Origin: Streptomyces sp. NBC_00820 | GTDB taxonomy: Bacteria > Actinomycetota > Actinomycetes > Streptomycetales > Streptomycetaceae | Assembly (NCBI RefSeq): GCF_036347055.1 | Contig: NZ_CP108882.1 | Span: 1,116,001 to 1,180,000, forward strand | Length of the DNA: 64,000 nucleotides | Direction of reading: 5' to 3' | Shown: in pieces, positions 5,817 to 37,151 of the stretch | Layout: every line of letters starts with the position of its first letter | Position numbering within the stretch: position 1 is the stretch's first letter | Notes under the pieces: generated by a model | Databases searched by the model: none | Seen by the model: only the letters and a program-made list of their open reading frames with translations | What the model was told of the DNA's origin: nothing | Program-made: the position numbers and the translations under genes

Positions 5817-7340
5817 ATGACCCGTTACGCGGCGCCCGGCACCGAGGGCGCGATCGTCTCCTACCAGGCGCGCTACGACCACTTCATCGGCGGTGAGTAC
5901 GTGCCGCCGGTCCGGGGGCAGTACTTCGAGAATCCGTCGCCGGTCAACGGACAGCCGTTCACGGAGATCGCGCGCGGCACCGCGGAGGACGTCGAGCGGG
6001 CGCTGGACGCGGCGCACGCGGCCGCACCCGGGTGGGGCCGTACGTCGGTGACGGAGCGCTCGGACATCCTGCTGAAGATCGCCGAGCGCATGGAGGCCCA
6101 TCTCGAACCGCTCGCGGTGGCGGAGAGCTGGGAGAACGGCAAGCCGGTACGCGAGACCCTGGCGGCCGACATCCCGCTGGCCATCGACCACTTCCGCTAC
6201 TTCGCGGGCGCGATCCGCGCGCAGGAGGGGTCGCTGGGCGAGATCGACGACGACACCGTGGCGTACCACTTCCACGAGCCGCTCGGGGTCGTGGCCCAGA
6301 TCATCCCGTGGAACTTCCCGATCCTCATGGCGACGTGGAAGCTCGCACCGGCCCTCGCCGCGGGCAACGCCGTCGTCATCAAGCCCGCGGAGCAGACCCC
6401 GGCCTCCATCCACTACTGGATGAGCCTCATCGCCGACCTGCTGCCGCCGGGCGTGGTGAACATCGTCAACGGCTTCGGCGTGGAGGCGGGCAAACCGCTG
6501 GCCTCCAGCCCGCGGGTGGCGAAGGTGGCGTTCACCGGGGAGACCACCACCGGGCGGCTGATCATGCAGTACGCCTCGGAGAACATCAAGCCGGTCACGC
6601 TGGAGCTGGGCGGCAAGTCGCCGAACATCTTCTTCGACGACGTCTGGGCGCACGACGACGACTTCCGCGACAAGGCCCTCGAGGGCTTCACGATGTTCGC
6701 GCTCAACCAGGGCGAGGTGTGCACCTGCCCCTCCCGGGCGCTCGTCCAGCGCGGTCACTACGCCGACTTCGTCGAGGCGGCCGTGGCCCGTACCCGCCAG
6801 ATCAAGCCGGGGCACCCGCTCGACACGGACACGATGATCGGCGCCCAGGCGTCCAACGACCAGCTGGAGAAGATCCTCTCCTACCTGGACATCGGCCGGC
6901 AGGAGGGCGCCAAGCTCCTCACCGGCGGCGAACGCGTCGAGTACGACGGCGAGCTGAAGGGCGGCTACTACGTCCAGCCGACCATCTTCGAGGGCGACAA
7001 CCGCATGCGGATCTTCCAGGAGGAGATCTTCGGCCCGGTCGTCTCGGTGACCTCCTTCGACGACTTCGACGACGCCATCAAGATCGCCAACGACTCGCTG
7101 TACGGCCTCGGCGCCGGCGTGTGGACCCGCGACATCAACACCGCCTACCGCGCGGGCCGTTCCATCCAGGCAGGCCGCGTCTGGACCAACTGCTACCACG
7201 CCTACCCCGCCCACGCGGCGTTCGGCGGCTACAAGCAGTCGGGCATCGGCCGCGAGACGCACAAGATGATGCTGGAGCACTACCAGCAGACGAAGAACCT
7301 CCTGGTCTCGTACTCGCCGAAAAAGCTGGGCTTCTTCTAG
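5817..7340 (+). CDS. NAD-dependent aldehyde dehydrogenase (ExaC-like)
   Basis: A full-length 507-residue cytosolic aldehyde dehydrogenase that oxidises acetaldehyde or similar aldehydes to acids with NAD. Catalytic Cys302 lies in GEVCTCPSR and the general base Glu263 in LELGGKSPN; the cofactor loop is FTGETTTG. The start ATG at 5817 follows a GGGAGG Shine-Dalgarno sequence. The last 20 codons (ending KKLGFF) are reused as an integration site: near-copies occur at 32450-32510 and 37091-37151. The gene is intact because the incoming element carried or preserved a matching 3' end. Confidence 0.95.
7280..7340 (+). repeat. attL: ALDH 3'-end copy of the integration site
   Basis: These 61 bp are the final codons and stop of the ALDH gene. 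They match 32450-32510 at 54/61 positions, including an unbroken 18-bp block at the left end, and match 37091-37151 at 50/61. A hairpin terminator follows this copy, and analogous hairpins follow the other two. The integrase remnant begins 62 bp downstream and is read towards this site, the standard arrangement for an attL next to int. Confidence 0.8.
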
Positions 7341-7347
7341 ACACAGA

Positions 7348-7390
7348 AAAGGGGCGCCTGACCAGGGCAGATGCCCGGCAGGCGCCCTTC
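7348..7390 (+). terminator. Rho-independent-like terminator between ALDH and int
   Basis: GGGCGCCTG (7352-7360) pairs with CAGGCGCCC (7379-7387), with an inner GGGCA/TGCCC helix, preceded by an A-run and followed by TTCT. It can serve the ALDH on the plus strand and the converging integrase on the minus strand. A variant of it is carried beside both other att copies, so it is part of the duplicated block. Confidence 0.75.
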
Positions 7391-7401
7391 TCGGTGCACA
7401 T

Positions 7402-35005: not shown

Positions 35006-35175
35006 GGGAACAGCCGGGCCGCCCCGCGCGGTTGCATCGATCGAAGGACCGGCGCCGCACGGGCGGGGAGCACGGAGACACAAGGTCGTCCGCCCCACCA
35101 GGATCCGGGCCCCGAGATCGCGGTACGCCCGCCGTGCACTCGGACCAAGACGTATTCCTACAGGAGGACTGTTTC

Positions 35176-36009
35176 ATGACTGACCGGCCCTTGACGCTCA
35201 TGGCAGTACACGCCCACCCCGACGACGAGGCCACCGGAACCGGAGGAGTCCTCGCGCGATACGCGGCGGAAGGCATCCGCACGGTTCTGGTGACGTGTAC
35301 CGACGGCGGTTGCGGTGACGGACCGGGGGGTGTCAAGCCGGGCGGTCCCGGGCACGATCCGGCGGCGGTCGCCTTGATGCGTCGTCAGGAACTTGAGGCG
35401 AGTTGTGACGTCCTGAAGATCAGCGATCTGGAGATGCTGGACTATGCCGACTCCGGGATGGCGGGCTGGCCGGGCAACGACGCCCCCGGATCCTTCTGGC
35501 AGACCCCCGTACAGGAAGGCGCGGCCCGACTCGCGGAACTCATGCGGCACTACCGACCCGATGTGGTCGTCACCTACGACGAGAACGGCTTCTACGGCCA
35601 CCCCGACCACATCCAGGCCCACCGCATCACGATGGCGGCGCTGGAGATGACCGGGCTGACACCGAAGGTGTACTGGACGACGATGCCCCGCTCGGGGATG
35701 CAGCGGTTCGGCGAGATCATGCGCGAGTTCCATGAGGACATGCCGGAGCCCGATCCCGCCGAGGCCGCGGCGCTGGCCGAGATCGGCCTCCCCGACGACG
35801 AGATCACCACGTGGGTGGACACCACCGCGTTCAGCGGTCAGAAGTTCGACGCGCTGGCCGCGCACGCCAGTCAGGGCGAGAACATCTTCTTCCTCAAGAT
35901 GGGCAAGGAGAGGTTCGGCGAGTTGATGGGCATGGAGACCTTCGTACGCGTCCAGGACGCCACCGGCGCGGCCATACCCGAGAACGATCTCTTCGCCGGA
36001 CTGCGCTGA
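35176..36009 (+). CDS. PIG-L family deacetylase (mycothiol-type)
   Basis: A 277-residue LmbE-like zinc deacetylase. The metal motif HAHPDDEATGTGGVLARY (residues ~11-28) and the second ligand set in YGHPDHIQAHR are present. Members include MshB and Mca in mycothiol metabolism; the length and FGELMGMETFVRVQD tail fit that group more than antibiotic deacetylases. ATG 35176 follows ACAGGAGGAC. The gene appears intact in a decayed neighbourhood, so it may be selected for. Confidence 0.9.
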   Translation: MTDRPLTLMAVHAHPDDEATGTGGVLARYAAEGIRTVLVTCTDGGCGDGPGGVKPGGPGHDPAAVALMRRQELEASCDVLKISDLEMLDYADSGMAGWPGNDAPGSFWQTPVQEGAARLAELMRHYRPDVVVTYDENGFYGHPDHIQAHRITMAALEMTGLTPKVYWTTMPRSGMQRFGEIMREFHEDMPEPDPAEAAALAEIGLPDDEITTWVDTTAFSGQKFDALAAHASQGENIFFLKMGKERFGELMGMETFVRVQDATGAAIPENDLFAGLR

Positions 36010-37090
36010 TCCGCCCGCCCGACCGGGGCCCGGAAAAACTCGTCTGCCGCACGGCGCGATCGAGTGGGGCACACACCCGGAGGCCTGTCCACGCGACTTC
36101 CGCTCCGGCAGCCCGCGTCCAGGCCCTCGCCGGCGGCGTCGACGCGTGCCCGCACTGCCGACCCGACACCGCGCTCGTCTCCCAACCACCTGCCAACCGC
36201 GCAAGTGGGAGACCTGCGGGCTGCTGACTCGGAAGGTGCGCGACAGCCCAGGTCACAAGCCCGGCCAGGGGCGACTGAGTTCGCTGTCAAGGCGGACGCC
36301 GGGGGCGTCCCGGCGTCCGCCCGGCGCTGAACTGCTCCGTGTCGGGCGGCTCGTGGGGAAACACGAGGGCGTCGATGCTGCCGCTTCCGGCCGCGCCGTA
36401 CTCAGTGCCGGTGCCTGAAAAGGCTGGTCTGCCGTTCCCCTCAACTCCGTTGCACCCCGTAGGTAGTTGCCGGACTGGGTGCCTGCTGAGAGCTCGTAAC
36501 ACGATCACGTGGTGGCTTTCTTGAGGCGTCTCCAGCAGATTCGACTGCAGGCAAGAGAGCTGAAGGCGTCGTGGAGTTCGGTGCGGCGCTCCAAGCGGAC
36601 GGCAAGGTCGAAGGCCCCGGCTTTCTGCCACCGTTTCAGCCGCCGCCAGCAGGTCTGTCCTGAGCCGAACCCTAGTTCCAGGACGGCAGTTGTCAGGCGA
36701 TGTCGTGGTGCAGCACGTACCGAATGACCTTCCCCGGACTCATGGCTGGTGGCGACCATCTGTCACCGAAGGACGCTCACACCCCGGTCCTCGAAGATCT
36801 CCAGGAGCAGGTCGAACAGCGAAACGTCGCGATCGCCGCCGGGCACGCGCTCCGCCAACCGCGCCCGAGCCCCGGCCGAGGATTCCCAGTGCAAGGTGAA
36901 TGGCCTGGAGGCGCCCCAGCCGCCGATCAGGCAGTCATCCAGAGCATCCAGGTTCCAGCCGAAATATCCGCCGAGCCCAAGAGACCGCCCGCAAGGCGAT
37001 CAGCAAGATGCGGACCACACCCGGGCCAGCATTCTCCGATTTCCCCTCTCTCCCCTCATTTGCGCTGGCCAGACCCATTCCGGCGATGTA
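36010..37090. other. 1.08 kb without intact genes, with an IS5-type scrap
   Basis: Around 36520-36700 on the minus strand, TAVLELGFGSGQTCWRRLKR and WQKAGAFDLAVRLERRTEL match the DUF4096 helix-turn-helix of IS5-like transposases; the catalytic part is missing. The rest has no recognised coding potential. At 37053-37090 begins the element right arm shared with 32411-32449. Confidence 0.5.
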
Positions 37091-37151
37091 CCACCAGCAG
37101 ACGAGGAACCTCCTGGTGCCGTACCCCCCGAACAAGCCCGGATTCTTCCAG
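37091..37151 (+). repeat. attR2: third, diverged ALDH 3'-end copy
   Basis: It matches 7280-7340 at 50/61 and 32450-32510 at 51/61. Translation would give YHQQTRNLLVPYPPNKPGFF, but the stop has become CAG, so it is not under coding selection. A hairpin-like sequence (37164-37199) follows as in the other copies. It marks the right limit of the islands. Confidence 0.75.

What the first reader, a model, noticed from the sequence alone, without database searches (positions are those of the whole stretch)
7280..37151. The 3' end of an aldehyde dehydrogenase gene as a repeated integration site for islands
Seen in the sequence: a 61-bp stretch of the ALDH 3' end (7280-7340) recurs in the same orientation at 32450-32510 (54/61 identical) and 37091-37151 (50/61). 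Each copy is followed by a related hairpin. An integrase remnant sits 62 bp from the first copy and is read towards it. tRNA and tmRNA genes are the usual targets of tyrosine integrases; a protein-coding ALDH 3' end that stays functional by carrying its own copy is unusual. The second copy has ALDH-like codon changes (KKPGFF), as if it came from another strain's gene.
Basis: partly seen in the sequence, partly recalled or inferred. Interest (0 to 1): 0.82.

Follow-up and report, generated by a model that had tools for sequence, protein, structure and literature searches.

The report
Islands inserting at a dehydrogenase gene end
In Streptomyces, a family of mobile DNA islands inserts at one exact spot inside the end of an aldehyde dehydrogenase gene and brings its own copy of that gene end; this genome carries what look like the decayed remains of two such islands in a row.

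Summary
Observation confirmed; main interpretation supported. The gene is exaC. Copies A, B and C are att sites of a tandem array: exaC-A-[25.1 kb, integrase remnant, gas-vesicle genes]-B-[4.6 kb]-C. A search with the integrase found that 24 of 26 fetched loci with integrases at least 67% identical have an exaC end 164-597 bp from the integrase end. Of 40 distinct loci at 57% or less none does; 33 lie at tRNA-Tyr, -Ser or -Arg. Two islands with both ends known (only one has an intact integrase) place the crossover in AGACGAAGAA, centre of an 8-9-8 bp dyad about 50 bp before the end of exaC. So the element supplies about 13 codons, the stop and a hairpin, and the original end is displaced. Empty sites exist in relatives (G009 against G007, G013, G283; G064 against G184), but for islands without a detected integrase of this clade, and not for this genome's own flank. 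The integrases form one clade beside tRNA-Tyr integrases that cross over in the anticodon loop, suggesting one tRNA-to-protein-gene target switch. Protein-gene sites (bacA, rlmN) and accretion are known in Streptomyces; this is a new, widespread member. Transfer mechanism unknown.

The parts
5817..7340 (+). exaC-type aldehyde dehydrogenase gene, the target gene (507 aa)
   Evidence: NCBIfam NF050026 AcaldDHExaC 963.5 bits, cut-off 900; Pfam Aldedh
7282..7306 (+). att site in exaC (copy A): dyad ACCAGCAG-ACGAAGAAC-CTCCTGGT; presumed 7-bp overlap CGAAGAA at 7291-7297
   Evidence: attL/attR mosaics of L203 and L070 limit the crossover to AGACGAAGAA(C); dyad counts; position
7291..7340 (+). exaC 3' end (from the overlap on) inferred to have been supplied by the inserted element
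   Evidence: Same logic as in L203 and L070; inference for this window
7352..7387 (+). hairpin after copy A, element type (contains CTGACCAG, inverse of the left-arm motif)
   Evidence: Fold z -5.3; lies in the stretch 7342-9008 that is 93% identical to L106
7402..8993 (-). remnant of a tyrosine integrase plus the 3' part of xis (two ORFs, 7402-8085 and 8067-8993)
   Evidence: PHROG phrog_1 integrase; Pfam Phage_int_M below its cut-off; 86% and 83% identical to the intact L051 integrase; lesions
9005..10545 (+). IS element inserted in xis (DDE transposase 9016-10512; inverted ends CTAGCGGTGGTTTGTT)
   Evidence: Pfam DDE_5; inverted ends
7341..32448 (.). island 1 (25.1 kb) between copies A and B
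   Evidence: Bounded by att copies; only its 1.7-kb integrase end matched the exaC-downstream regions of the 37 relatives compared
16109..19654 (-). gas vesicle genes (GvpK, two GvpL/F, Gas_vesicle) in island 1
   Evidence: Pfam
32421..32430 (+). left-arm motif CGCTGGTCAG of island 1, before copy B
   Evidence: Shared with other displaced copies
32449..32510 (+). copy B: displaced exaC end; dyad 32452-32476, overlap 32461-32467
32523..32559 (+). hairpin after copy B, element type
   Evidence: Fold z -5.4
32557..32573 (+). 17-bp exact match to the integrase 3' end (7539-7555), probable trace of a second element's integrase
   Evidence: Only exact match of 13 bp or more between 32511-37090 and 7396-8993; the reverse-complement control gave one of 14 bp
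32511..37089 (.). island 2 (4.6 kb) between copies B and C: transposase-like ORF 33538-34659 (HTH_21), PIG-L deacetylase 34852-36009
   Evidence: Pfam; an 870-bp stretch at 33017 is 91% identical to L053
37063..37072 (+). left-arm motif CGCTGGCCAG before copy C
37090..37151 (+). copy C: displaced exaC end with stop changed to CAG and a mutated overlap (ACGAGGAAC)
37166..37197 (+). hairpin after copy C, element type, so C may be a junction with a third, lost element and not the outer edge
   Evidence: hairpin types

Best explanation
The 3' end of exaC is the attB of a clade of tyrosine integrases. Int binds the dyad ACCAGCAG-ACGAAGAAC-CTGCTGGT, formed by the codons for QQTKNLLV, and exchanges strands in its 7-9 bp centre. 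The circular element carries a copy of everything from that centre to beyond the stop codon, so integration rebuilds exaC with about 13 element-borne last codons, stop and hairpin; the original exaC end is pushed to the far side. Repeated insertion into the site still present at exaC gives tandem arrays. This window is a decayed array: island 1 (A-B) with a broken integrase, an older island 2 (B-C), and possibly lost material beyond C. Shown by comparison: target specificity of the clade, crossover interval, displaced native ends, empty sites in relatives, arrays. Inferred: catalysis by this Int, arm sites, order of insertion in the window.
For: Integrase-led searches: 16 of 19 and 24 of 26 fetched loci with close integrases have an exaC tail beside the integrase; the sets share some genomes. 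0 of 40 distinct loci with integrases at 57% identity or less do. Crossover: in L203 (11.1 kb between exaC and displaced copy, intact Int) the two copies share AGACGAAGAA, and the sequence after the stop is element-type at exaC and native-type at the displaced copy; L070 gives AGACGAAGAAC with divergent codons on the right. Empty sites: the right flank of the G009 displaced copy follows exaC directly in G007 (95% over 3 kb), G013 and G283; the G064 copy, 2.5 kb from its exaC, continues as G184 exaC does (84-91% over about 5.7 kb), and both share the rare tail SAQKLGFF. Horizontal spread: over 42 occupied sites the distances of element arms and exaC bodies are uncorrelated (r = 0.08); the window and Streptomyces sp. 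NBC_00154 (L106) differ by 3% in the arm and 14.5% in the exaC body, and 7342-9008 is 93% identical to L106.
Against: The islands of G009 and G064, on which the empty sites and one of the two mosaics rest, have no detected integrase of this clade, so their link to it is by position, core and left arm only. No empty site was found for this genome's own right flank. Two close integrases lack an exaC tail beside them: L253, where a tail lies about 1.75 kb off (L170), and L267 (same contig as L117), with none. Association of core sites with body or arm was mixed: positions -18, -17 and -10, right of the proposed crossover, track the exaC body better than the arm, while -13 tracks the arm; a clean recent exchange at about -50 would not predict this. 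Many exaC loci with an element-type hairpin have no integrase (9 of 15 and 21 of 42 in the two exaC-based sets), taken as decay but not proved. The dyad of the window does not fold better than shuffles as a single strand (65 of 200 as good). Nothing was tested at the bench.
Confidence: 0.9

Rival explanations
1. The three copies arose by ordinary segmental duplication or homologous recombination of the exaC end, and the nearby integrase is incidental.
For: In the window the integrase is broken, copies B and C have no complete integrase, and homologous recombination between copies would also produce and shuffle such arrays.
Against: Copies begin at about the same point; B and C carry the same left arm, and all three a hairpin. 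The same integrase clade lies at a similar spacing from exaC in many species. Displaced copies match the exaC end of the empty-site relatives.
Confidence: 0.03
2. The crossover is not in the dyad but further right, at the stop codon or in the hairpin, so the gene end is never replaced and the element merely carries a captured copy.
For: In L116 and L157 the two copies agree over about 57 bp, so they do not localise the exchange. Some sites right of the dyad track the exaC body. L038 and L120 have arms 5% apart but differ in tail codons.
Against: L203 and L070 differ at several bases between the dyad and the stop, and the displaced copy carries the native-type flank. In L070 it also carries the codons of G007 but for one base, and G064 shares the native tail of G184 at its displaced copy.
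Confidence: 0.08
3. The islands are actinomycete integrative and conjugative elements (AICEs) of the usual kind, with this Int as one more variant.
For: Int and xis arrangement, and kinship of Int to integrases at tRNA-Tyr, tRNA-Ser and tRNA-Arg, resemble AICE integration modules.
Against: No FtsK_SpoIIIE (TraB-type) match lies between exaC and the displaced copy among the matches listed for 16 of 16 genomes; the list was cut near E = 2.5e-6. None appears among the 25 of 82 Pfam families shown for 103 ORFs of 18 loci.
Confidence: 0.15

Closest known systems
PAISt and related islands at the 3' end of bacA in Streptomyces (PMC4057263, abstract and passages seen; PMC10711302, passages seen)
   Same: Tyrosine recombinase, protein-coding 3' end, duplicated gene end (141 bp) at the far end plus an internal copy, tandem modules, integrase remnants.
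   Different: Target is bacA with an 8-bp palindrome TTCATGAA; here exaC with a 25-bp dyad. No sequence comparison of the two integrases was made here.
AICE insertions in protein-coding genes such as rlmN, and accretion at tRNA-Arg (PMC9513070; passages seen)
   Same: Protein genes were 14 of 51 insertion sites; tandem accretion and decay to remnants are described.
   Different: The word aldehyde does not occur in the main text; elements there are grouped by traB, rep and int genes.
tRNA-Tyr integrases of Streptomyces (found here; SLP1 as the classical case is recalled, not from a call)
   Same: Nearest relatives with a recognised target (47-56% identical); crossover also in the loop of a dyad, with the element supplying the 3' part; gene at a similar distance from int (153-197 nt in 15 of 16).
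   Different: Overlap CTGTAAA (anticodon loop) instead of CGAAGAA; tRNA instead of protein gene; in the six tRNA-Tyr elements compared, the element's left core flank is unlike the gene's, in the exaC set it is like it.

Membership tests
Site-specific integrative island with gene restoration (tyrosine integrase) | Integrase gene next to one att site | tested here: met
   integrase alignment ends 164-218 nt (once 597) from the exaC tail in 24 of 26; in the window the remnant is at 7402-8993
Site-specific integrative island with gene restoration (tyrosine integrase) | Direct repeats at both ends that share a short identical core | tested here: met
   in the window A and B share CGAAGAA, C is mutated there
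Site-specific integrative island with gene restoration (tyrosine integrase) | Empty attB in relatives | tested here: met
   Met for G009 and G064, islands without a detected integrase of the clade; not found for this window's own flank
Site-specific integrative island with gene restoration (tyrosine integrase) | Target gene still reads to its stop after insertion | tested here: met
   exaC 507 aa open in the window; the ends of 112 exaC loci read to a stop
Tyrosine recombinase | Integrase family match and catalytic residues | tested here: inconclusive
   PHROG integrase E 4.8e-29 for L051; MRPxE, YDLRH and YAKF stretches are conserved, their catalytic roles recalled; no PDB match by sequence
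AICE | FtsK/TraB-type DNA translocase | tested here: not met
   None of the listed matches lies in the islands of 16 of 16 genomes; list cut near E = 2.5e-6
AICE | RepSA or Prim-Pol replication gene | tested here: inconclusive
   Not among the 25 of 82 Pfam families shown for 103 ORFs
Prophage | Virion structural genes | tested here: inconclusive
   One minor-tail-like match among 103 ORFs; otherwise regulators, methylases, transposases and the like in the 25 of 72 PHROGs shown

The most novel reading that the evidence does not exclude
One integrase lineage left the tRNA-Tyr anticodon stem-loop for a protein-coding gene because the codons for QQTKNLLV in exaC form a dyad that mimics that stem-loop (AGCAGA-7 nt-xCTGC in both). 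Since then every insertion swaps the last 13 or so codons of ExaC for an element-borne version, so the islands shuffle the C-terminus of a conserved enzyme across the genus.
Probability: 0.5. Interest if true: 0.68.

Novelty: new member of a known kind. Interest (0 to 1): 0.55.

Why it matters
It defines a widespread insertion hot spot in Streptomyces (29 of 98 exaC loci fetched without regard to an integrase have one beside them) with a predictable attB, a set of intact integrases for new integration vectors, and a simple marker (displaced exaC ends) for finding islands with cargo such as terpene, lanthipeptide, Argonaute or gas-vesicle genes. The clade also makes the old question of how integrases move from tRNA genes to protein genes testable, since relatives with both targets and mapped crossovers are now at hand.

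Tried and rejected
Looking for the window's own empty site through the amidase right of copy C failed: the amidase region occurs in 57 of 392 genus genomes, this one included, and of the 30 loci fetched (one is the window) none of the 29 others shows exaC within its 1.5-kb flanks. Comparing the exaC-downstream regions of 37 relatives (of 38; one was too short) with the window gave only the integrase end and one stretch in island 2.

Locating the crossover by association of single sites with body or arm distance was inconclusive; the mosaics of L203 and L070 decided it.

A regular role for the TAG-to-CAG change in displaced copies was considered and left open: 8 of 37 have CAG, 22 keep TAG, 7 read otherwise, some of these probably out of register.

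The resemblance of exaC to the tRNA-Tyr anticodon region is only moderately significant: the genus consensus matches 15 of 24 (window 14), flanks 12 of 17 (window 11); 53 and 294 of 127,954 window positions reach 12 and 11, and an unrelated window position reaches 18 of 24.

A first tree lost three tRNA-Tyr rows through a slip of mine in removing duplicates; one search replaces it.

Literature: searches, which asked for an aldehyde dehydrogenase or exaC, gave no report of such an att site (one search listed 20 of 28 papers, none with that term; the other three gave no paper); searches were on SLP1 and on target switching. Only open-licence papers are held and supplements were not readable. The word aldehyde is absent from the main text of PMC12924846, PMC3218068, PMC9513070, PMC10711302, PMC12884075 and PMC4057263.

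Full report
OBSERVATION. The repeat is real and far beyond chance: 54/61 and 50/61 against a next best of 32/61 in the window. In the 8.1-Mb genome the end of this gene matches only at these three places; three further matches are paralogues. The target gene is exaC. B and C share a left flank that A does not have, and all three are followed by strong hairpins. The integrase beside copy A is a remnant: an IS sits in xis, 41 bp are lost across the xis/int junction, and one base is lost in int. 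It is otherwise 93% identical over 1.7 kb to the element end in Streptomyces sp. NBC_00154 (L106).

TARGET SPECIFICITY. I searched for exaC in 61 genomes and fetched the sequence after exaC in 38. Seven of those 38, and 22 of 60 further exaC loci picked from the listing, have an integrase of this family within 330 bp of the exaC stop. Those 60 were taken from the top of the listing by likeness to copy B, so they are not a random sample. I then turned the search round. With an alignment of two intact integrases as query, genome contigs gave 19 loci: 12 have full exaC beside the integrase (in L109, L119, L120 and L121 the integrase is broken), 4 (L111, L113, L114, L118) have an isolated exaC end there, and 3 (L117, L122, L123) have none. 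In 392 genus genomes an integrase search gave 30 fetched loci: of the 26 with identity of 67% or more, 24 have the exaC tail beside the integrase. The two exceptions are L253, where a tail lies about 1.75 kb from the integrase (L170), and L267, the same contig as L117. Several genomes occur in both sets (L112 and L259; L114 and L265; L110 and L269). The 40 distinct loci with identity of 57% or less, of which I chose 36 by hand from the listing, have no exaC: 16 lie at tRNA-Tyr, 1 at a tRNA-Tyr fragment, 12 at tRNA-Ser, 5 at tRNA-Arg, and 6 at nothing recognised.

CROSSOVER. In L203 exaC and the displaced copy are 11.1 kb apart, with an intact integrase at exaC. At exaC the sequence reads CCAACAGACGAAGAATCTTCTGGTC and continues after the stop with the element-type hairpin. 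At the displaced copy it reads CCAGTAGACGAAGAACCTGTTGGTG and continues with a native-type terminator. The shared core is AGACGAAGAA. L070 (G009), in which no integrase of this clade was found, gives AGACGAAGAAC with strongly different codons to the right: exaC there now ends ILCSYSPQKLDFF, while the displaced copy has the [13 protein letters not shown] coding of G007 but for one base. This core is the centre of a dyad, ACCAGCAG-ACGAAGAAC-CTGCTGGT. Of 112 exaC loci, 107 have at most 2 of 8 mismatches between the arms; these sequences are homologous, so the count is not independent evidence, and as a single strand the window's dyad folds no better than shuffles. In the window the dyad is 7282-7306. 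Association statistics on 42 occupied loci were mixed and did not by themselves place the exchange.

EMPTY SITES. The sequence right of the displaced copy in G009 (8.4 kb from its exaC) follows exaC directly in G007, G013 and G283. The sequence right of the displaced copy in G064, 2.5 kb from its exaC, follows exaC in G184; both share the rare SAQKLGFF ending. The alignments are not clean just after the stop: steady similarity begins at base 209 in G009 against 74 in G007, and at base 263 in G064 against 183 in G184. Neither island has a detected integrase of this clade, so these cases show insertion at the site, not by which enzyme. For the window's own right flank no such relative was found. 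Because copy C is followed by an element-type hairpin, C may itself be an inner junction.

MOBILITY. Over 42 occupied loci the distance between element arms (230 bp after the stop; mean 36%) and that between exaC bodies (mean 15%) are uncorrelated, r = 0.08. The closest arms differ by 1-3% while the bodies differ by 7-19%; window and L106 differ by 3% and 14.5%. Displaced copies lie from 0.7 kb (L069, G018) to about 139 kb (G285) from exaC; the long ones may be arrays. Cargo differs from element to element: terpene synthase genes and IS elements in L203, lanthipeptide-type genes and regulators, Argonaute, MADS-like and methylase genes, and gas-vesicle genes in the window. The survey covered 103 of 120 predicted ORFs, from 18 loci; I dropped 17, among them all those of L109 and L119. 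No FtsK/TraB match lies inside the islands of the 16 genomes tested, among the matches listed, so how the islands move between cells is unknown. They may be mobilised in trans.

ORIGIN. In a tree of 58 integrases, rooted at the midpoint for drawing only, the 18 exaC integrases form one clade (100/100). Their sister group (84/75) holds one tRNA-Tyr integrase and two without a recognised target, and the next group is 12 tRNA-Tyr integrases. In six tRNA-Tyr elements the direct repeats begin at CTGTAAAT, the anticodon loop; in three more (L284, L290, L292) the repeat that covers the loop reaches further left. Aligning the crossovers gives AGCAGA-CTGTAAA-TCTGC for tRNA-Tyr and AGCAGA-CGAAGAA-CCTGC for exaC. 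This register is the best one in 110 of 112 loci, but the match alone is only moderately unlikely (53 of 127,954 window positions do as well as the consensus in the flanks), and in the six tRNA-Tyr elements the element's own left flank does not match AGCAGA. A single target switch is therefore likely; mimicry as its cause is a reasonable idea, not shown.

WHAT IS KNOWN. Protein-gene 3' ends as att sites, gene-end duplications, tandem modules and integrase remnants are described for bacA islands (PMC4057263, abstract and passages; also PMC10711302, passages). Protein genes made up 14 of 51 sites in one Streptomyces population, with rlmN named and accretion described (PMC9513070, passages). AICE tyrosine integrases were found mostly at tRNA genes (PMC3218068, passages). 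Anticodon loops as overlap regions and target switching between tRNA genes are reviewed for archaea in PMC8371274 (passages). I found no report of exaC; the search library is limited to open-licence papers. Hence: a new member of a known kind, with a well-resolved site and an interesting origin.

Noticed in passing
G092, G216, G403, G349: A second copy of the exaC end lies on the opposite chromosome arm and in opposite orientation to exaC (e.g. G216: exaC 9,019,438 minus, copy 1,262,446 plus of 10.37 Mb), as if islands had been breakpoints of symmetric inversions or arm exchange; the G349 copy was seen in the listing only.
   Followed up: no
37149-37151 and displaced copies in L054, L116, L155, L159, L164, L208, L223: The displaced exaC end has lost its stop through the same TAG-to-CAG change in 8 of 37 tail-only copies.
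   Followed up: partly
32493-32507 and 37134-37148: Copies B and C share the codon change giving KPGFF, seen in none of 112 exaC loci; they may share a history.
   Followed up: partly
window 16109-19654: A gas-vesicle gene cluster sits inside island 1.
   Followed up: partly
L203:5066-7987: The 11.1-kb exaC-site island of G075 carries a terpene synthase and a squalene-hopene-cyclase-like gene besides two transposases.
   Followed up: no
ORFs of alignment A3: Single members match prokaryotic Argonaute (E 1.8e-165) and a DRT-type polymerase model, two match mad2 and three PDC-S18 models of PADLOC: possible defence cargo at this site.
   Followed up: no
L270 and L289 (G338:C3, G191:C40): Two integrases close to the exaC clade have neither exaC nor a tRNA next to them; their target is unknown.
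   Followed up: partly
L049, L056, L070: Three exaC genes end in a distinct (I/L)LCSYSP... version with different codons; L049 has it without a displaced copy or integrase found downstream, perhaps a scar of a lost element.
   Followed up: no
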